From a virus, in IMG/VR virus record IMGVR_UViG_3300037584_006704, positions 1 through 22,842 of that record: 22,842 nucleotides of DNA, one strand, 5' to 3'. Numbering within the stretch: position 1 is the first letter of the stretch; each line of letters begins with the position of its first letter. This document shows, in pieces, positions 1-20,145 of this stretch. The notes under the pieces were generated by a model, which saw only the letters and a program-made list of their open reading frames with translations, was not told the origin of the DNA and searched no databases. The translations under genes and the position numbers were made by a program.

Positions 1-1044
1 ATTATCAACATTTCTTTTCAAGAAATCTTCAATTAATTCATTCTGATAATTAACATCTCTTACATCACCAATGTCTAATTTATTCTCTCTATCATCACCA
101 ATGGATATATTATCTTGTCTTTCCGTTACTATCTCTTTTAACTTCGGATATTGTTTTCTTAAACCAATTTGTATATCTTTGATTTGTTCCAATGTAGTGT
201 TTGTAAATTTAATTTTTACTCTACCTTTTGGTGGCATGAATGTCAACTCATATGGTTTACCAGTTGTTGAGTTTTTTATCTCACCATCCACTACATTTAA
301 TATTTTATATCCATAATCATTCTCCACTTGATGATATGTGGCTTTTCTTTTCTCTACATCCCATAATAAGAATCCGTGGCTTGGTTCTTCTGAATAATTC
401 TGTTGAATCAATGAACCAGGATACGCAATAGTTTCTTCTTCATTTAAGAATTGTCGTTTGTGAATATCACCCAACAACACCATATCATATCCAGCAAATG
501 TGTCATTCGTCACTCTATCATCTTGGACTTGGAATCCATTATCATAAAAGTGTTTATCCACTCCACCGTGAAATAAAGCTATCGATGTGTTTTTTAAATC
601 TTTTGGATTCGGTATTGTATCTGTTATTTGTTTACCTTCTTTATCAATATCAAAAATAGATAATGTAGCAAAGTCAATATTATCCATATTGTACACACCT
701 GTCTTTTTCCAATAATGTAAATTAGGTGTAATCTTCTGAACTAAATCCACAATAGGTGAAAGTGTATCTTCTCTTGATTTATTATTTAAATTACAATCGT
801 GATTACCTGGTATGACAATCGTGGGAGCAATCTTACATAACTCTAAAAAGAAGTTTGCAACCATTCTGACTTCTTCAGGTGAGGTATCCAATTTTCCGTG
901 AACCACATCACCACCAATATAGATAGCATCTGGTTTTAAATCTTTTAATTGTTTATATAGTTTTTTAAATACTTGTCTGTATTCTACGAAACGATGTAAC
1001 TTACGAATGTGTATGTCTGCTAAATGAGCTATTGTTTTAATCAA
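1..1044 (-). CDS. 47: gp47-like recombination endonuclease subunit (SbcD/Mre11 family), 3' end outside window
   Basis: This is a calcineurin-like metallophosphoesterase, the nuclease half of the gp46/gp47 (SbcCD, Rad50/Mre11) complex that resects DNA ends for phage recombination and recombination-dependent replication. I read 348 codons with no stop up to the left edge. The metal-binding motifs are in family order: D10-x-H12 (ADIHIRK), GGD at 44-46 followed by H49 and G50, GNHD at 80-83, H159 in LFHGG, and GDIH at 192-195. T4 gp47 has 339 residues, so little of the C-terminus should be missing. The start is TTG: an in-frame TAA lies directly upstream, and GGAG sits 7 bases before the TTG. It overlaps the phosphomannomutase gene by 8 bases, which suggests translational coupling. 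A gp46 (SbcC) partner would be expected beyond the left edge, but that is inference. The family call is firm; the exact gp47 orthology is very likely. Confidence 0.87.
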   Translation of the reverse strand, partial: MIKTIAHLADIHIRKLHRFVEYRQVFKKLYKQLKDLKPDAIYIGGDVVHGKLDTSPEEVRMVANFFLELCKIAPTIVIPGNHDCNLNNKSREDTLSPIVDLVQKITPNLHYWKKTGVYNMDNIDFATLSIFDIDKEGKQITDTIPNPKDLKNTSIALFHGGVDKHFYDNGFQVQDDRVTNDTFAGYDMVLLGDIHKRQFLNEEETIAYPGSLIQQNYSEEPSHGFLLWDVEKRKATYHQVENDYGYKILNVVDGEIKNSTTGKPYELTFMPPKGRVKIKFTNTTLEQIKDIQIGLRKQYPKLKEIVTERQDNISIGDDRENKLDIGDVRDVNYQNELIEDFLKRNVDN

Positions 1045-1771
1045 TTAAATTCTCCAATATTTCTTGTGTTTGTTTCCAACCATTTGTTTGAAATGTATAA
1101 CAATTATTTGTTTCTTCCATTAATTTTGCAAGTGGATAATCGTTTCCACCCTCTTTTGTTCTATCACCTATGAAAATATATTCATTTGGCTCACTAAATG
1201 GAATAGCAAAATCAGTTTCTATGTGTTCAAATATTTGTGATTTATCCATTCCTTTGGGATAAATATCAATTGATATTTGTCCACCCAAAACAGCATCTAA
1301 ATCTTTAAACTTGTTTTTCAAAAATGTACTAATCTTTTTTCTTTCACCTTTTTCATTATCCCATTTAAAAAAATGTTCTCTTTGTTCTTGATTACAATTC
1401 CTACCCACGATACTAAAGTTTACCATTGAACCTCTATCTTCAATATGATTACCATAACGATGTGGATATGAACTACTCATCAATACAATATCTAAAGCAT
1501 TTTTAAGTTTTGAAGTTAATTCAAACTTGTTATCATAAATTAATTCATTATCTCTCCACATTTGATTTCCACAACAGGTGAATATAGCTTCTGCTCTATC
1601 TATATAAGCAGTTGGTAATTGTTCTTTTGTTTTATCTAAATCACTACCTGTAACTAAATAGTAGTTATTTCTTTCACTCCACTTATCAAAGTATTTAGCA
1701 AACTCCTCTGTCATTCTTAATCGTGATGGTGTTAATGTCCCATCTACATCAAATATGTATATCTTACCCAT
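1037..1771 (-). CDS. Eukaryotic-type phosphomannomutase-like HAD phosphatase
   Basis: This 244-residue protein belongs to the HAD superfamily with a IIB-type cap and resembles eukaryotic phosphomannomutase (PMM, about 246-250 residues), which interconverts mannose-6-phosphate and mannose-1-phosphate. The catalytic loop is FDVDGTLTPSR, with D8 as nucleophile and D10 as acid/base. TGSD at 41-44 followed by K47 and EQL matches the PMM GGSD..K..EQL region. The cap carries EDRGSMVNFS then GRNC (about 111-126), matching PMM's RNGMLNVSP.GR substrate-binding stretch. GGQIS at 163-167, D169, P172, D176 and K177 follow, then the Mg site GDRTKEGGND at 202-211. PMM usually has GWDK where this has GMDK. 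It sits between primase and gp47, overlapping both by 8 bases, with AGGA 7 bases before its ATG. A role in making a GDP-sugar or in scavenging phosphate or sugar is inference. A sugar-phosphate or nucleotide phosphatase of the same fold is the alternative. Confidence 0.8.
   Translation of the reverse strand: MGKIYIFDVDGTLTPSRLRMTEEFAKYFDKWSERNNYYLVTGSDLDKTKEQLPTAYIDRAEAIFTCCGNQMWRDNELIYDNKFELTSKLKNALDIVLMSSSYPHRYGNHIEDRGSMVNFSIVGRNCNQEQREHFFKWDNEKGERKKISTFLKNKFKDLDAVLGGQISIDIYPKGMDKSQIFEHIETDFAIPFSEPNEYIFIGDRTKEGGNDYPLAKLMEETNNCYTFQTNGWKQTQEILENLID
1052..1055 (-). promoter_or_regulatory. Ribosome binding site that fixes the TTG start of gp47
   Basis: GGAG on the minus strand lies 7 bases before the TTG at 1044, inside the last codons of the phosphomannomutase gene. 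An in-frame TAA at 1045-1047 leaves no earlier start, and no ATG is close downstream before the conserved D-x-H motif. Confidence 0.7.
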
Positions 1772-9000: not shown

Positions 9001-11263
9001 ATGGTAAAACATTAGTTGGATTTTTTAATGTTACTTTTACATCAGTAATAAATGATTGAGTTAAAGCAGAACCTGATGTTATTTTTAAAGTAAATAAATC
9101 ACCGGCCGGCATTACAGAACCTTTAAATGGAACACCACTTTGAGTTATTACTGTAGTTGGATATAAATTAGTTGAATCTTTAATTTGACTTGAACCTGTT
9201 TTAACACTTCCACTTAAAATTTCAATTTTTGTTGAACCGGCATTAAAGTCACCAGTATCGATACTTAAATCAGCCATATCATTACCATTTGTTTTTGGTA
9301 TGAAATAAGATTGAGAAGCTTCATATATAAATCTTTTATAAGAACTACTAATTACAGTTGGCTCTAATATTGATGCAGTGTGAGCTGTGTCATGTGGTAA
9401 AAAGAAACCATTAGATATAAAACCAGTTACTAAATTATTACTAATTTGCCTACTAATTTCTAAATTATTTGTTCCCTTTAGTAAAAATGAAAGATATACA
9501 GACCCACTATGATTAAAAAATGGTTTATTTTGTATTCTATACAATGTGTCTGTTAAATGAATATCTTCACCTAATTCCAAATTAGAATTTTTATAAACAA
9601 CATTAAATCCATCACTTTGATTTAATTCTTCATAATTACCATCCTGTTTTAGTGGATTATTATCAGCATAGTTTTTCAGTGCAGGAGCAGAGGAGGTTGA
9701 ATCCGTTTGTCCATCAAAATATAAAAATCTTTCATAAGGTGTAAATGTTTTAAATTCTTCACTTATTTTATTAAATAAATCTTTTCTTTTTTGAATTACA
9801 AAAGTTGAATCACCAGTTAGAGAAATACCATCAGTTGACAGTGAACTTGATATTTCTGAATAGTAACTTTGAATAGTTTCAACCTTTGTTTTAAAATTTT
9901 CTAATTTCTTTTTAGCAGAACCAAAAAATGTATGATTTGTAAATTCGTTAAAATCTGTGTTTAAATTAGGATAACCATAACTACTCGCAGATATTAAAGT
10001 GTCTGATGTGATATCTTCTATTGATGATGAATTTATTAAATCATCAAAATTTTCAAAACCAATTTCATTATTTATAGGAGTAAGCCAATTTTCTTGTTGG
10101 TCAGGTTTTAATCCATCACCAAAAAATACATCAGGTACTTCAGAAAAATAAAATATATCTTGTACTTGTGTTGTTAGAACTTCTCTTTCAATAGTAACAA
10201 ATGATAGATTACTTATGTTGGTAGGTAGTGCATCATATAGTTTAAGTATAATTGATTGATTGTCTTTACCATCTGTTACCCTATCAAAGGTATAATTCAT
10301 AATAGGGTTATGGTCACCGTTTCCAACACTTAGTATATGTCCGAATTGATATTTGTAATTAGGATTAGGTAAAAAATTACCCTGTTCGTCAACTTCAGTT
10401 AAAAATTCAGGTTCATTGTTATTAAATTCATTTGTTAGTTTTGTTATAACATCTGAATTATTTAAAATAGGTTCGTTTAATATTTTTAATCTAACCTCTT
10501 TTCTTGAAGTTGATATTTGTTTTATAATAAACTTATATTGTACATTTTCAGGTTCAGAATAATAATATTCAACTCCCAATGGTGGTGGTGATGGTGGGGT
10601 GTTGTCTACTGTTTCACCATCTGGTCCTGTATCTGGAGGATTTTGAAGTTGCCAATCAGTATATTTTGGTGGTTCAGGTATAGAACCACCGATTATAGCC
10701 GGTATTAACTCAGCAATATCTTGTCTATTTACACTAACCCAACCAGCAGAATCTTCAATATTTAAAAATCCACTACCATTATAATCAAAATCTTCAAACC
10801 AATAAGGTGTTGGTAACTCTTGTTCAAATAATTGTCCTGCAGAAACTTGATTTAAAAAGTCAATTTGAATTTTATAATCACCTTGAGGTAATTCGAATTT
10901 ATTAAATATTTCATTTGGTTTTATGTATATTTCAGAAGAAGAATCAGATATATCTTTTTTGTATATTTTAAAATCACCTTTATCACCACCATATAAATTA
11001 CCACCTATGGGCTTTTCTCTGTATACATTATTTTCTGTAAATGGTGATATATTAATGACCATTGAATTAGGATTTAAAGTTGAGAAAAATATAGCTTTAC
11101 CATCAATACCTTTTTCACTATTGGGTAAATCCACTACATTGGTTATAGCTTCAGTTGGATAAATGGTAAGTCGAATGTAATCATTATCTGAAAATTGTCC
11201 ATTGGTTTCAGAAATTACTAAATCTTTATCTTTTTGATTAAATTCAAATTCTAATTCAGGCAC
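6032..11263 (-). CDS. Giant baseplate/tail protein (1743 aa) with gpI-like segment and LamG-like domain
   Basis: This is the largest protein in the window. The N-terminal 200 residues are beta-rich, followed by a proline stretch (TPPSPPP, near 224). Around residues 855-930 is a helical section with W-R--L--L--IYKSKGTKNSIRGLLNVYGYP. That matches the KGT---IR--L---G pattern of P2-type tail protein I, the TssG/gp7 equivalent in contractile tails. Residues about 975-1190 look like a LamG/concanavalin-type jelly roll, ending in the usual GSLAEIKAWSTTLS stretch. The C-terminal 550 residues are Asn/Ser-rich with no recognised domain. T4 gp7 has 1032 residues. The start is GTG: a TGA lies a few codons upstream in frame, and GGAG sits 7 bases before. 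It shares one base with the stop of the 733-residue gene (TAGTG). It is a virion protein with high confidence; the wedge role is inference. Confidence 0.7.
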   Translation of the reverse strand: MPELEFEFNQKDKDLVISETNGQFSDNDYIRLTIYPTEAITNVVDLPNSEKGIDGKAIFFSTLNPNSMVINISPFTENNVYREKPIGGNLYGGDKGDFKIYKKDISDSSSEIYIKPNEIFNKFELPQGDYKIQIDFLNQVSAGQLFEQELPTPYWFEDFDYNGSGFLNIEDSAGWVSVNRQDIAELIPAIIGGSIPEPPKYTDWQLQNPPDTGPDGETVDNTPPSPPPLGVEYYYSEPENVQYKFIIKQISTSRKEVRLKILNEPILNNSDVITKLTNEFNNNEPEFLTEVDEQGNFLPNPNYKYQFGHILSVGNGDHNPIMNYTFDRVTDGKDNQSIILKLYDALPTNISNLSFVTIEREVLTTQVQDIFYFSEVPDVFFGDGLKPDQQENWLTPINNEIGFENFDDLINSSSIEDITSDTLISASSYGYPNLNTDFNEFTNHTFFGSAKKKLENFKTKVETIQSYYSEISSSLSTDGISLTGDSTFVIQKRKDLFNKISEEFKTFTPYERFLYFDGQTDSTSSAPALKNYADNNPLKQDGNYEELNQSDGFNVVYKNSNLELGEDIHLTDTLYRIQNKPFFNHSGSVYLSFLLKGTNNLEISRQISNNLVTGFISNGFFLPHDTAHTASILEPTVISSSYKRFIYEASQSYFIPKTNGNDMADLSIDTGDFNAGSTKIEILSGSVKTGSSQIKDSTNLYPTTVITQSGVPFKGSVMPAGDLFTLKITSGSALTQSFITDVKVTLKNPTNVLPFDNIYKTTSTEFTDWYNNALTQAETFDTNNIHSFENNLPLYIQNSSDFNDMKKFLNLQGEQYDLIRNHIDSMGTIHKRGYKKTNSPPDNTLPMLLNNMGYQAINPFGGSLTETLGSYLSGVTSIDDIKNNTWRKTLNNLLYIYKSKGTKNSIRGLLNVYGYPPDVINFQEFGGSTTNDLNDSLNDNLPDDTGVDINLDAITGSVSYIDNKKKLYYYNFNNNTDRILNLDWWMDGANINTVEFVYKHVKTTQEQTILKSSGSGAETLWDVRLIPSSDGLSSSFEFRLNNSQEADTAIGSRGFSMSLAFNQMTDGQLWNVMLQRMTGSTSGPGTIEYRLHSALQNNKIIKPHSVVTMSISGGLVGNSSTEGGKGFFANQNFQSSGSRHPLSSSNLFVGEIFSGSLAEIKAWSTTLSTSKFKQHTLNKFSTVGNTIDSFKTDLVYRFKLNENYSSASVSSSAQNLQLIDSSPPKLFGDYSITKPGTFFTSSIIYGFDIVDVVKVITQDNQDNANDNKILINPNIQSIGNNLNSDIVDNINNNQKPEVITSPKLELFSSPQNFVNNFILDNLGGFNFEKLYGNPNDYYSQFYNEFDTFRENFFKENPIEINTNKFIRAYENLYDVSLVEGLKKLVPARSTFSDRNANVGVQIKNTLLEKQKYENEEHSVEVNPNAPIGNYNLDIKLNNIVFNKETLTELLTEKEGTAEITPSTIGSIEVIHSDTISLGNAYVTSSGYLAPFSGSTLASESNQSVKNNFHPPFLQPGGYVVTIENPLSASMSPLPTYDGSTIVLSKNGTIDYASNVNKSYVDVHKNWGRTNNDVQHINFAAPTGSDGTFNTYDIEKRFVFHSIGDMEYYSASFGDSSDFSNSDKFYNRLLIDNDFHANVNYESLINGNPGNQTGRMMGKTRYFITSSDGSITFPSNHVTNFSQPFKEQMNKGTQNTNPGFLNVRYEDYSTASFYRVNVTGGENQIIIKGGSGDIDGDDKIIYAP

Positions 11264-13464
11264 TACATTGCTCCATCATTTTTACGAGTTTTTTTGGGAA
11301 CTTTAATGAATGTATCTCGTCTCATAGGTTCACCTTTTCTATTTTTTTTAATTTTATAATCACCAATTAATAAACCTTTATTTGAATTTCCACTAGAATC
11401 ATAAATAGAATTATTTGTTAATTCACTTGTATTTATTTCCATTTTACAATTTTTTTTCAATTCCATATCCTGATTATCATTTATAAATATCTGTCCAATG
11501 GAACTTTCCATTGGAAAAGTTCTATCAGAAGTTTCTCCATTATATTCATTATAAGAAATAAGTTGATTATCTTGAACAGCTTCGATGTTTAGTAGTTCAT
11601 AAATACTATATTGTTTGTTAAAATAACGACATTGTTCTAAATCTAATTTTTCAATTGATGAACCTAATTCATTATTTTCTCTAGCATTTATCAAAAACTT
11701 TTCATCAATTATATCCGTATCTCCAATTTTACCTCCACCCAATGTATTTAAAATACTTTGATAATATTTTGAATCTTTATCAATTCCACCAATGATAGCT
11801 GTTGTGTATGGCCAAGGTAATGTTGTGTAATTAGTGCCTCCCAACTCACCAAAATCAGGATATTGATTAATTGGTATATCTAAGAAAATTTTAGTTGTTA
11901 CTAATTTCCATCTACCTAATTGTCTTGTTGTTTCATCAAAACTTATCATAATAGACTTTATGTTTTTAATACCTGGTGTAGTATATGTGTTTGTAACAAA
12001 TTCATTATTTTCATTACTAAAAATTTTATATATATTTTCGGTGTCTTTTAAAATTTGTAAATCTTGAAGTTCAGATGGTCTAATTTTTAACCAATCATCT
12101 AAAGTTTTTATTTTATCTTCAATATCATTCCAATCAATTACAAAGTAATAGAATTTTATTGTATCGATATCAAAATTGTTTTCACTCATCGCTTTAAAAC
12201 TTAATCCAATTGTAGCTGGTGCTGAAGCTATCAAACTTTTTTGTAAATCGTTTTCATAATAACTTTGTAAATCAATTTCTGTTTTTAAATTATTATCAGT
12301 ATCTAAAGTTGAAACGATTGTCTTTGGAATAAAATTTGGATATATTGAATCTTGGTTATCGTCTGGTCCTGGTGGATTTGTATTATTACTTAATTGTCTA
12401 TCAAAATTAATTGATAGTAAATCCACATCAGATAAAAAGTTTGAAATAAAATAAGTTGGTTGAACGGATTCAAAAAATTGTACATAGTTCTCTTCATCAC
12501 TTAAAATTTCATCAACTTCACCAGCCCAATTATTAGGAATTGCATCAATAGTACTGATGGATATTTTTAAATCAGTAACTGTCCAGGCTGGTTTTTCATC
12601 ACCATAACCTCCCCCATCACCTTCTACATCAACAATTTTTGGAAGATTTGTTTCAGAATCAAAATAAGATATTTTACCACTAACTTCATTACCTTGAACA
12701 TTAAATAATTCTAAATTATCTATTTTATAAACTTGATATTTTCTTTTTCTTACATCAGTTCCAATCCATGGGTCTTCATCACCTCTTAATCTAATTACTA
12801 AATAAATAGCATTATTAATATTTTCATCAAATATTTTAGTCGATAAACCACCTTCATCTTTTAATGGAAAGTTTTCGGTAAATGGTCCATTACCACCTAG
12901 ATATTCATCACCACCACTAAAACCTGTATTACGACCATCGAAATCTCCAAATTCCGGCCCATCAGCAGCTGCAGAAAAGTTGAATAAAATATTCTTCCCT
13001 TCTACATGTGTGACATTTCCTAAATCACCACCATTTAAATTACTAAAATTTTGTACAAAAAATCTTCTTCTAAAACTATCTGCCCCAACAATACTCTTTA
13101 AAGCAGAATAACCAATACCAGGTGTTATATATGCATCCTCTTCGGAAAATAAATAACCCTCCACTCTATTATTTTTAGTGGGTTTAGGTGATGCATAAGC
13201 ACTTACATACAATGAATCAATACGAATAAAATTTGAACTACCACCTCCCCCTTGTGCCTTTAAATTTCGTTTTATTATTGCATTATTAACATCAGAACCA
13301 ACTGATTTTGTGTATAAATCTTTATTTTGAAATTTATCATTGTTGAGAGGTAGACCGATTGAATCATAGTAATTTATTGATTCAGTATTATAATTTTCAT
13401 CAAAATTATAAACACTAACATCACCTATGTTTGGTTCGTCAATAATTATTAATTTCTTTTCCAA
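11263..13464 (-). CDS. Virion protein (733 aa), shorter paralogue of the 1271-aa neighbour
   Basis: This 733-residue acidic, Asn-rich protein is unrecognised as a named gene. Residues about 150-260 may be a jelly-roll domain ending in YQVYKIDNLELF. Residues about 425-545 look like a degenerate PKD domain (YYFVIDWND, later YTTPGIKNIKSIMIS), followed by a C-terminal module from about 557. That module has the same landmarks as the 1271-residue protein: IIGG, YY-SI---LG, a YSIYELL segment, a DSSGN-N-G-LI-DYK stretch, and a basic tail ending NDGAM. The start is TTG, immediately after the neighbour's TAA and in the same frame; GGAG lies 8 bases before it. No Met occurs early enough to be an alternative. 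The two genes probably arose by duplication. A baseplate or fibre component is the likely role. Confidence 0.65.
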   Translation of the reverse strand: MEKKLIIIDEPNIGDVSVYNFDENYNTESINYYDSIGLPLNNDKFQNKDLYTKSVGSDVNNAIIKRNLKAQGGGGSSNFIRIDSLYVSAYASPKPTKNNRVEGYLFSEEDAYITPGIGYSALKSIVGADSFRRRFFVQNFSNLNGGDLGNVTHVEGKNILFNFSAAADGPEFGDFDGRNTGFSGGDEYLGGNGPFTENFPLKDEGGLSTKIFDENINNAIYLVIRLRGDEDPWIGTDVRKRKYQVYKIDNLELFNVQGNEVSGKISYFDSETNLPKIVDVEGDGGGYGDEKPAWTVTDLKISISTIDAIPNNWAGEVDEILSDEENYVQFFESVQPTYFISNFLSDVDLLSINFDRQLSNNTNPPGPDDNQDSIYPNFIPKTIVSTLDTDNNLKTEIDLQSYYENDLQKSLIASAPATIGLSFKAMSENNFDIDTIKFYYFVIDWNDIEDKIKTLDDWLKIRPSELQDLQILKDTENIYKIFSNENNEFVTNTYTTPGIKNIKSIMISFDETTRQLGRWKLVTTKIFLDIPINQYPDFGELGGTNYTTLPWPYTTAIIGGIDKDSKYYQSILNTLGGGKIGDTDIIDEKFLINARENNELGSSIEKLDLEQCRYFNKQYSIYELLNIEAVQDNQLISYNEYNGETSDRTFPMESSIGQIFINDNQDMELKKNCKMEINTSELTNNSIYDSSGNSNKGLLIGDYKIKKNRKGEPMRRDTFIKVPKKTRKNDGAM
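11266..11800 (-). repeat. Paralogous C-terminal module, copy in the 733-aa gene
   Basis: This codes for about 178 residues running from IIGGIDKDSKYYQSILNTLG to a basic tail ending NDGAM. The order of landmarks (IIGG, YY-SI---LG, a YSIYELL segment, DSSGN-N-GLLI-DYK, Lys-rich tail, N-GA-hydrophobic) matches the C-terminus of the 1271-residue gene. The similarity is visible at protein level only; the copies are strongly diverged in DNA, so the duplication is old. Confidence 0.6.
11271..11274 (-). promoter_or_regulatory. Ribosome binding site for the GTG start of the 1743-aa gene
   Basis: GGAG on the minus strand lies within the Gly-Ala codons that end the 733-residue gene, 7 bases before the GTG that overlaps that gene's TAG. 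It decides the GTG start, since the first internal Met is at about residue 68. Confidence 0.65.
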
Positions 13465-19002: not shown

Positions 19003-20145
19003 CTATTTCCTCTTAACTATAAATTCAAAATCATCATCAAACACTTGTTCTTGCCCATCATCATATTTTAATTTTAATAATATTTTATAAACCCTATCAG
19101 GATAAAACCCATCTAAGTATTGAATAAAATAATTTGATTCACTATCACAACTGAGTTTTGTATAACTAACATCTTGATTATCTTCAAAAGGCACTATAAA
19201 CTCATCAGTAGTAACATCTTTAATTGCATATGAACCACTACCTTCAGTTATGAATGAACCAGTCACAGTCTGAACTGAATTAGAAAAAGTTTTTTGAATA
19301 TACCTTTTTCTTGCACCAACCCTAAACTTAACTCGTTCACCAACTTTATATTCCTCTCTCAACCCCTGCATGTATAAAAAGTTATCAGCTAACCCACTCA
19401 TTGTTAATTCAGTTAATGAACCTGTGTTTGAACCCGTACAAGGTAAATGGTCATCCCAACGAACTTCCAATTGTGGTGAGTAAATAGTATGTGTGTTTCT
19501 TGAAAAGAATTTTAAATGTCCAAATGTTGTTGAATTAGTTTCTTGAGTTCCATTAAAACGAATCAACATACCATTATTTTCTTCTTGACCTTTTAACCAC
19601 ATATTAACCATATCAGTTACTTCTACATTTACGTCAGGAGATTGATTTGAAAAAGTTTGTGTTGATGAACTAAGTACAGAGAGTCCTGTTGGTATTTTAT
19701 AACTTGTACCACCAGCATTAAGCCAAGGCACTGCTGTTCCACCTATTGGATTACTACGATTATCAAAACTACAACCATTAGTATTTTTTGGATTATCACC
19801 AAACTTACCAGTACCCTCAGTCCAAGATTCTGATAATGGTTGAATCGCTAAAGTATATTCTTCAGTCATCTCAGCATTACCCTCAGCTTCATAAAGTCTT
19901 AAATAGTATTTCGCGTCTGAGTCTATAGTACCATCAGCTACTGACTTAGATAATTCAGTAAATTCATCCCCACTAAATTGAACCAACGCCCTTGTAAAGT
20001 GGTCTAATGATGAATTAAAAAATTCTTTTTTGACTTCAAGTATTTGGTCTCTTCCAAAGTTTTGGTCTCTGAAAGATTCACCAGTTATTTTTGACGAACC
20101 ACTTGAAATCCAAGTGTCTTGATTTGGAAAAATAAAATGATGCAT
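19003..20145 (-). CDS. Virion protein (380 aa) with DNRLRE-like domain
   Basis: Residues 1-220 resemble a DNRLRE-type beta domain, found in surface proteins and some phage particles. The opening IFPNQDTWI, YYLRLYEAEG at 80-89, YTLAIQPLSESWTEGTG at 97-113 and a VTDMVNMWLKG strand fit that pattern. The remaining 160 residues look like a second beta-sandwich, ending in basic VKRK. No catalytic residues, signal peptide or membrane helix were found. The ATG shares one base with the gp6 stop (TAATG), and GGAG is 9 bases upstream, so translation is coupled to gp6. Position after gp6 suggests a baseplate part or fibre-attachment protein. T4 has gp7 here, but this protein is far too short and lacks similarity I can see. 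Confidence 0.62.
   Translation of the reverse strand: MHHFIFPNQDTWISSGSSKITGESFRDQNFGRDQILEVKKEFFNSSLDHFTRALVQFSGDEFTELSKSVADGTIDSDAKYYLRLYEAEGNAEMTEEYTLAIQPLSESWTEGTGKFGDNPKNTNGCSFDNRSNPIGGTAVPWLNAGGTSYKIPTGLSVLSSSTQTFSNQSPDVNVEVTDMVNMWLKGQEENNGMLIRFNGTQETNSTTFGHLKFFSRNTHTIYSPQLEVRWDDHLPCTGSNTGSLTELTMSGLADNFLYMQGLREEYKVGERVKFRVGARKRYIQKTFSNSVQTVTGSFITEGSGSYAIKDVTTDEFIVPFEDNQDVSYTKLSCDSESNYFIQYLDGFYPDRVYKILLKLKYDDGQEQVFDDDFEFIVKRK

What the first reader, a model, noticed from the sequence alone, without database searches (positions are those of the whole stretch)
1037..1771. Eukaryotic-type phosphomannomutase inside a phage replication/recombination operon
The protein matches eukaryotic PMM in length and in every main motif (DVDGTLTPSR, TGSD..K..EQL, RG.MVNFS..GRNC, GGQIS.D..P.G.DK, GDRT..GGND). 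Bacteria normally use the unrelated alpha-D-phosphohexomutase type. Its coupling by 8-base overlaps to primase and gp47 is odd for a sugar enzyme. It may feed GDP-mannose or fucose synthesis for glycan or DNA decoration, or act as a repurposed phosphatase on nucleotides or DNA ends.
Basis: partly seen in the sequence, partly recalled or inferred. Interest (0 to 1): 0.62.

Follow-up and report, generated by a model that had tools for sequence, protein, structure and literature searches.

The report
Phage phosphomannomutase closest to eukaryotic enzymes
This marine phage gene encodes what looks like a complete phosphomannomutase, a sugar-phosphate enzyme of the kind otherwise known from eukaryotes, and hundreds of phages carry relatives of it, often beside genes for making activated sugars, so it probably helps the phage build an activated sugar rather than copy or repair DNA.

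Summary
In detail: window 1037-1771, minus strand, encodes a 244-aa protein of the eukaryotic phosphomannomutase (PMM) family (PF03332, 107 bits; human PMM2 E 1e-29). Every PMM catalytic and substrate residue is kept. The AlphaFold2 model (pLDDT 95) matches trypanosome PMM at Z 28.6. In a tree, 47 phage PMMs form one clade, sister to eukaryotic PMM and separate from bacterial HAD-type alpha-phosphoglucomutases. At least 564 IMG/VR stretches encode relatives. The family is PHROG 29277, 'unknown function'.

The link to replication is positional. Phages whose primase is 95-96% identical lack PMM, and there primase and gp47 overlap by the same 8 bases; PMM is one of several cargo genes in that slot. 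Its real partner is a cytidylyltransferase-like nucleotidyltransferase (18/20 PMM+ versus 7/26 PMM- DNA-polymerase loci), sometimes with a mannose-6-phosphate-isomerase cupin. A near relative carries a GDP-mannose 4,6-dehydratase and glycosyltransferases.

Best reading: a phosphohexomutase making Man-1-P (or Glc-1-P) for an NDP-sugar. Whether the sugar goes to DNA, virion or host surface is unknown. A DNA-end phosphatase is not supported. New: the phage sister clade of eukaryotic PMM and its nucleotide-sugar module.

The parts
1037..1771 (-). HAD-type phosphomannomutase/phosphohexomutase gene, 244 aa (P0001), PHROG 29277
1742..1750 (-). codons of D8 (nucleophile; PMM2 D12) to D10 (acid/base; PMM2 D14), motif I DVDGT
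   Evidence: alignment to PMM2; roles from PMC3465800
1379..1435 (-). cap-domain substrate segment R113 ... N118 ... R124 ... R131 (PMM2 R123, N128, R134, R141)
   Evidence: R113, N118, R124 and R131 invariant in 47 of 47 phage sequences; bacterial alpha-PGM has R, T/S/A, Q, K there
1265..1273 (-). codons of S167 to D169 (PMM2 S179, D181), cap substrate contacts
1139..1165 (-). D203 to D211 (PMM2 D209, D217), Mg-binding motif GDRTKEGGND
   Evidence: roles from PMC3465800 and PMC4263888
1776..1782 (-). AGGAAGA, ribosome-binding-like sequence before the PMM start, inside the primase gene
   Evidence: read from sequence
1764..1771 (-). 8-base primase/PMM overlap ATGGGTAA
1037..1044 (-). 8-base PMM/gp47 overlap TTGATTAA
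1764..2684 (-). upstream boundary of the slot: DnaG-type primase (phrog_47)
1..1044 (-). downstream boundary of the slot: gp47/SbcD-type nuclease, runs off the contig

Best explanation
The gene encodes an active HAD-superfamily phosphohexomutase, most likely a phosphomannomutase. D8 takes a phosphate from hexose-1,6-bisphosphate and passes it between C6 and C1 of mannose (probably also glucose), with D10 as acid/base. The cap arginines R113, R124 and R131 hold the distal phosphate while the sugar turns over. The product, hexose-1-phosphate, is then activated to an NDP-sugar: by a phage cytidylyltransferase-like nucleotidyltransferase in relatives that carry one, otherwise by another phage or host enzyme. 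The NDP-sugar is remodelled (epimerase, dehydrogenase, GDP-mannose dehydratase) and transferred to an acceptor. PMM sits as optional cargo in a slot between primase and gp47 and has no part in replication itself. Shown here: family, residues, fold, phylogeny, cassette behaviour, association with the nucleotidyltransferase. Inferred: activity, the sugar made, the acceptor.
For: PF03332 107 bits and PDB hits to eukaryotic PMM. All PMM pocket residues kept; the cap positions R123, N128, R134 and R141 are invariant in 47/47 phage proteins, and three of them differ in bacterial alpha-PGM. The same residues line the T. brucei PMM pocket: D9, D11, S45, R121, R132, R139, S177, K187, D206, D214 (PMC3465800). 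Model pLDDT 95.2, Z 28.6 to T. cruzi PMM over 233 residues, versus 25.1 for 4bnd and 19.5 or less for Cof and other HAD phosphatases. Phage+eukaryote grouping 98/94, and 100/99 without outgroups. Nucleotidyltransferase in 18/20 PMM+ versus 7/26 PMM- polymerase loci, p 2e-5; p 6e-4 after collapsing relatives at 85%. Cupin mannose-6-phosphate isomerase nearby (PF01050 E 3e-30). Three nucleotidyltransferase-cupin fusions. Epimerase and NDP-sugar dehydrogenase neighbours. A near relative with GMD at 430.7 bits over a 415 cut-off, NDP-sugar dehydrogenase and GT2s. Slot evidence. Purifying selection. Precedent: Bacillus phage SP-15 is proposed to use a phosphomannomutase, hexose-phosphate isomerase, uridylyltransferase and UDP-glucose dehydrogenase for DNA hypermodification (PMC5977210).
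Against: No activity is shown. The window is a 22.8-kb fragment without a nucleotidyltransferase, isomerase or recognised glycosyltransferase, and L002, L006 and L218 likewise have PMM alone in the slot. No GDP-mannose pyrophosphorylase-type protein (PF00483) in 19 of 20 PMM-group records. The partner nucleotidyltransferase is of the cytidylyltransferase/HldE kind, for which hexose-1-phosphate is not an established substrate (own knowledge). GMD-size proteins occur in only 6 of 20 PMM+ records searched, and cyanophages S-SSM7 and P-TIM68 lack one. The phage residues at PMM2 Q177 and S179 vary (E/Q; S/G), so sugar specificity may differ among members.
Confidence: 0.74

Rival explanations
1. It acts mainly as a phosphoglucomutase (Glc-6-P/Glc-1-P), either supplying UDP-glucose-type donors or draining host glycogen into G6P and nucleotide synthesis as an auxiliary metabolic gene.
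For: T. brucei PMM also interconverts glucose phosphates in vitro, and RNAi data suggest it does so in vivo (PMC3465800). NDP-sugar dehydrogenase and UDP-glucose-type epimerase neighbours occur in relatives. SP-15's PMM is assigned Glc-6-P to Glc-1-P (PMC5977210).
Against: The residues are those of PMM rather than of the bacterial alpha-PGM subtype, and mannose-6-phosphate isomerase and GMD genes are associated. For the degradative version, the neighbours are biosynthetic (NTase, epimerase), not glycogen-degrading.
Confidence: 0.15
2. A repurposed HAD phosphatase acting on nucleotides or DNA 3'-ends, working with primase and gp46/47.
For: It lies between primase and gp47 with 8-base overlaps. 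HAD-IIB folds include many phosphatases.
Against: The distal-phosphate arginines needed by a hexose bisphosphate mutase are invariant in 47/47. Primase and gp47 occur without it in phages with 95-96% identical primase. In most other phages it lies elsewhere, often next to nucleotide-sugar genes. The fold search ranks phage PseT at E 0.95.
Confidence: 0.04
3. A recent gene transfer from a eukaryote, or eukaryotic contamination, in a phage contig.
For: Sequence closest to eukaryotic PMM among solved structures.
Against: It sits seamlessly in a phage operon, with relatives in cyanophage isolates and at least 564 IMG/VR stretches. The phage clade is sister to, not inside, the eukaryotes sampled (7 sequences) and is deeply diverged. 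GC is that of the window.
Confidence: 0.05

Closest known systems
Eukaryotic phosphomannomutase PMM1/PMM2/SEC53 (PF03332; e.g. T. brucei PMM 3f9r, L. mexicana PMM 2i54)
   Same: Length, all four HAD motifs, every catalytic and substrate residue, cap fold (Z 28.4 to 3f9r, 33% identity)
   Different: Phage-encoded; forms its own clade sister to eukaryotic PMM; residues at PMM2 Q177 and S179 vary among phage members; dimer interface not examined
Bacterial HAD-type alpha-phosphoglucomutase (L. lactis 4bnd type; Patescibacteria, Bacteroidota, sphingomonads)
   Same: Same Pfam family and fold (Z 25.1)
   Different: PMM2 positions R21/N128/R134/R141 read K / T,S or A / Q / K there; separate clade
Bacillus phage SP-15 sugar-nucleotide genes for DNA hypermodification (PMC5977210)
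   Same: Phage-encoded phosphomannomutase, hexose-phosphate isomerase, nucleotidyltransferase and NDP-sugar dehydrogenase proposed to feed a sugar modification
   Different: The class of SP-15's mutase was not tested here; its uridylyltransferase is a different enzyme; for the window phage no DNA modification is shown
PHROG 29277 (function unknown)
   Same: The window protein matches it over its full length, E 6.4e-58
   Different: It carries no function; this work proposes one

Membership tests
Eukaryotic-type phosphomannomutase (PF03332, HAD type IIB) | Curated family score above cut-off | tested here: met
   107.3 bits vs 22.4
Eukaryotic-type phosphomannomutase (PF03332, HAD type IIB) | DxDGT nucleophile and acid/base, Ser of motif II, Lys of motif III, Asp pair of motif IV | tested here: met
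   D8, D10, S43, K177, D203, D211; roles per PMC3465800
Eukaryotic-type phosphomannomutase (PF03332, HAD type IIB) | Cap arginines and Ser that bind the distal phosphate, plus R21, N128, D181 | tested here: met
   R113, R124, R131, S167, R17, N118, D169; R113, N118, R124, R131 and D169 equivalents invariant in 47 phage sequences
Eukaryotic-type phosphomannomutase (PF03332, HAD type IIB) | Type II cap between motifs II and III, PMM fold | tested here: met
   pLDDT 95.2; top structural hits are PMMs, Z 28.6
Eukaryotic-type phosphomannomutase (PF03332, HAD type IIB) | Phylogenetic grouping with eukaryotic PMM rather than bacterial alpha-PGM | tested here: met
   98/94 with outgroups, 100/99 without; the euk+bacteria alternative has p-AU 0.037. 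Cellular sampling is limited
Eukaryotic-type phosphomannomutase (PF03332, HAD type IIB) | Mutase activity with hexose-1,6-bisphosphate activator | not testable with these tools
   needs purified protein
Bacterial HAD-type alpha-PGM (4bnd) | Lys/Thr/Gln/Lys type residues at PMM2 positions 21/128/134/141 | tested here: not met
   R/N/R/R in the window protein
Cof-type HAD-IIB phosphatase | TIGR00099 cut-off | tested here: not met
   30.8 bits vs 137; Cof outgroups distant in the tree
Bacterial alpha-D-phosphohexomutase (ManB/AlgC type) | Pfam PGM_PMM domains | tested here: not met
   no such domain listed for P0001; the model has the HAD/PMM fold
PNKP/PseT-type DNA 3'-phosphatase | family-level similarity to PseT | tested here: inconclusive
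   no such family among the hits; Foldseek E 0.95 to phage PseT

The most novel reading that the evidence does not exclude
A large phage-borne PMM clade is the closest known non-eukaryotic relative of eukaryotic PMM, so the eukaryotic enzyme, and with it the GDP-mannose entry to N-glycosylation, may share its ancestry with a viral lineage. In phages the clade serves dedicated NDP-sugar pathways, with a cytidylyltransferase-type enzyme activating the hexose-1-phosphate, possibly for sugar-modified DNA.
Probability: 0.22. Interest if true: 0.82.

Novelty: new variant of a known kind. Interest (0 to 1): 0.6.

Why it matters
It gives a likely function to an unannotated but common family of aquatic phage proteins (PHROG 29277) and places it next to, not inside, the eukaryotic PMMs that cause PMM2-CDG when defective. 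The origin of the HAD-type eukaryotic PMM, as opposed to the bacterial ManB type, becomes testable with a specific sister group. It also points to an overlooked way for phages to make activated sugars: isomerase, PMM and a cytidylyltransferase-like enzyme, two of these sometimes fused. And it shows how short gene overlaps in phages can suggest functional coupling that is not there.

Tried and rejected
Functional coupling to primase/gp47: rejected by empty-slot relatives. Cof-type or DNA-end phosphatase: rejected by residues and scores. Recent eukaryotic transfer: not supported by the tree, but only seven eukaryotic sequences, recovered from PDB alignments, were used. Acinetobacter phage 'hydrolases' (L019, L020) and the faecal phage record L021 turned out not to belong to the clade, although L019/L020 sit beside a cupin or nucleotidyltransferase; they were left out of the residue counts. 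The E. coli yidA region was missed. Cluster 4, thought at first to be a sugar gene, reads like a sliding clamp and was dropped. The conserved 508-aa neighbour found no Pfam, PHROG or PDB match. In the 80-locus polymerase test, cupin and epimerase/dehydrogenase showed no association with PMM; only the nucleotidyltransferase did. Literature searches gave no paper combining phosphomannomutase, phage and auxiliary metabolic genes, and the four that mention both phosphomannomutase and cyanophage do not, by their titles, deal with a HAD-type PMM in phages.

Full report
What is there. Window 1037-1771 (minus strand) is a 244-aa ORF between a DnaG-type primase and a gp47/SbcD-type nuclease, downstream of a RuvC-like resolvase and a T4-like baseplate and tail region (gp25, gp6 and long structural proteins). 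It scores 107 bits to PF03332. Its best solved relatives are eukaryotic PMMs, and its PHROG (29277) has no function. It has the base composition of the window and evolves under purifying selection (dN/dS about 0.15-0.3). The window is a whole virus record of 22,842 bases, presumably a fragment of a larger genome: gp47 runs off its end and relatives reach 168.8 kb.

Is it really PMM? Aligned to human PMM2 and to 47 phage, 30 bacterial and 7 eukaryotic sequences, the window protein keeps D12, D14, R21, S47, R123, N128, R134, R141, Q177, S179, D181, K189, D209 and D217 (window D8, D10, R17, S43, R113, N118, R124, R131, Q165, S167, D169, K177, D203, D211). R123, N128, R134, R141 and D181 are invariant in all 47 phage proteins. 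The 30 bacterial alpha-PGM-subtype proteins all have K at R21, Q at R134 and K at R141, and T, S or A at N128. These residues are those that line the T. brucei PMM pocket (PMC3465800), and R134 and R141 were mapped chemically as active-site arginines of PMM2 (PMC4263888). The AlphaFold2 model (73-sequence alignment, pLDDT 95.2) matches T. cruzi and T. brucei PMM at Z 28.6 and 28.4, the L. lactis alpha-PGM at 25.1, and other HAD phosphatases at 19.5 or less.

Where does it come from? A tree of 90 sequences puts 47 phage proteins in one clade (96/97), sister to the eukaryotic PMMs (100/100), with the joint group at 98/94. The bacterial HAD-type alpha-PGMs lie elsewhere. Without outgroups the split phage+eukaryote versus bacteria is 100/99, and forcing eukaryotes with bacteria gives p-AU 0.037. 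PF03332 is patchy in bacteria: above cut-off in 39 of 287 genomes of one phylum and 3 of 296 of another, and the members recovered are of the alpha-PGM subtype. Cellular sampling was limited to the phyla reachable from three loci and to plasmids, and eukaryotic sampling to seven PDB chains, so the sister relation needs a wider test.

How common is it? Isolated cyanophages S-SSM7 and P-TIM68 have one.

Why between primase and gp47? In relatives whose primase is 95-96% identical (L219, L220, L222, L223, L224) primase runs straight into gp47, overlapping by 8 bases (ATGGTTAA), and in most distant relatives the two are likewise adjacent. Other relatives hold PMM alone (window, L002, L006, L218), nucleotidyltransferase + PMM (L005, L230), a DruA-like gene + nucleotidyltransferase + PMM (L003), RimK-type gene + PMM (L004, L023, L233, L236), or methyltransferase + unknown + PMM (L225). 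The five empty-slot records have no PMM elsewhere in the sequence held. The slot takes changing cargo and the 8-base overlap is how genes there join. It is not evidence for a replication role.

What does it work with? Across 122 non-redundant relatives plus the window, a cytidylyltransferase-like nucleotidyltransferase (PF01467; nearest solved relatives PCYT2 and TagD; best NCBIfam models HldE2 and TagD, below their cut-offs) occurs within 6 kb of PMM in 51, directly adjacent in 23. A cupin isomerase occurs in 31 and an epimerase or NDP-sugar dehydrogenase in 32. At least one of these is present in 77 of 123. The cupin of the L008-L014 group is a mannose-6-phosphate isomerase domain (PF01050, E 3e-30; NCBIfam GMP_PMI). 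Three loci fuse nucleotidyltransferase and cupin. As a control, 80 loci were fetched by a family-B DNA polymerase instead of PMM. With at least 2.5 kb downstream of the polymerase, the nucleotidyltransferase is present in 18 of 20 PMM+ and 7 of 26 PMM- loci (p 2e-5; p 6e-4 after collapsing at 85% polymerase identity, p 0.03 at 75%). The cupin and the epimerase/dehydrogenase showed no such association in that set. The nucleotidyltransferases fall into at least two subfamilies, which suggests repeated pairing.

What consumes the product? The closest large relative (G606, 168.8 kb, primase 88% identical, PMM in the same slot) carries, in its first 19 kb, a GDP-mannose 4,6-dehydratase above the curated equivalog cut-off (430.7 vs 415), further NDP-sugar dehydratase/epimerases, an NDP-sugar dehydrogenase above cut-off, a cytidylyltransferase-aldolase protein and glycosyltransferases. 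GMD-size proteins occur in 6 of 20 PMM-bearing records searched and in none of 6 PMM-less ones; these numbers are too small for a test. A classical mannose-1-phosphate guanylyltransferase (PF00483) is missing in 19 of 20 records. So GDP-mannose supply is likely in some lineages, with the host or an unusual nucleotidyltransferase doing the activation; in others the NDP-sugar may be CDP- or ADP-linked. A published phage precedent for the logic is SP-15, whose proposed DNA-hypermodification pathway lists a phosphomannomutase, a hexose-phosphate isomerase, a uridylyltransferase and a UDP-glucose dehydrogenase (PMC5977210). Nothing here shows that the window phage modifies its DNA.

Verdict. The replication-coupling and DNA-end-phosphatase ideas are not. 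Activity, sugar and acceptor are inferred.

Noticed in passing
L003:8738-11965, L005:8722-11925, L373:7955-11176: In close relatives the gp47 reading frame continues to about 1070 aa, so gp47 and gp46 (SbcD and SbcC types) appear to be one fused protein; the window copy runs off the contig.
   Followed up: no
L040:5730-6497, L081:6342-7121, L094:6533-7309: Single proteins that fuse the cytidylyltransferase-like enzyme to the mannose-6-phosphate-isomerase-type cupin.
   Followed up: partly
L003:6924-7499: 191-aa gene with similarity to Druantia DruA (PF14236, E 1.2e-8) in the primase-gp47 slot beside nucleotidyltransferase and PMM.
   Followed up: no
L004:7106-8008, L233:1294-2202: A RimK-like ATP-grasp ligase takes the nucleotidyltransferase's place next to PMM in at least four relatives; its substrate is unknown.
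   Followed up: no
L070:6481-8007 and 22 relatives: Conserved ~508-aa protein near PMM and the sliding clamp with an LGDSGGFQ motif reminiscent of tRNA-guanine transglycosylase/DpdA, but no Pfam, PHROG or PDB match.
   Followed up: partly
L017:9165-9602 (S-SSM7): Annotated 'NAD synthetase' (phrog_447), but its other family matches are homing endonucleases; the name looks wrong.
   Followed up: no
L015:6325-7452 and 11197-12711: RuBisCO-large-like protein and carbamoyltransferase around PMM in this phage contig, with two radical-SAM proteins.
   Followed up: no
L010:4529-5713: Tryptophan-halogenase-family protein near PMM, between DNA polymerase pieces.
   Followed up: no
L238:8914-9378: SET-domain protein in the primase-gp47 slot.
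   Followed up: no
window 19003-20145: 380-aa structural-region protein with a CBM96 carbohydrate-binding module, possibly a receptor-binding or tail fibre part.
   Followed up: no
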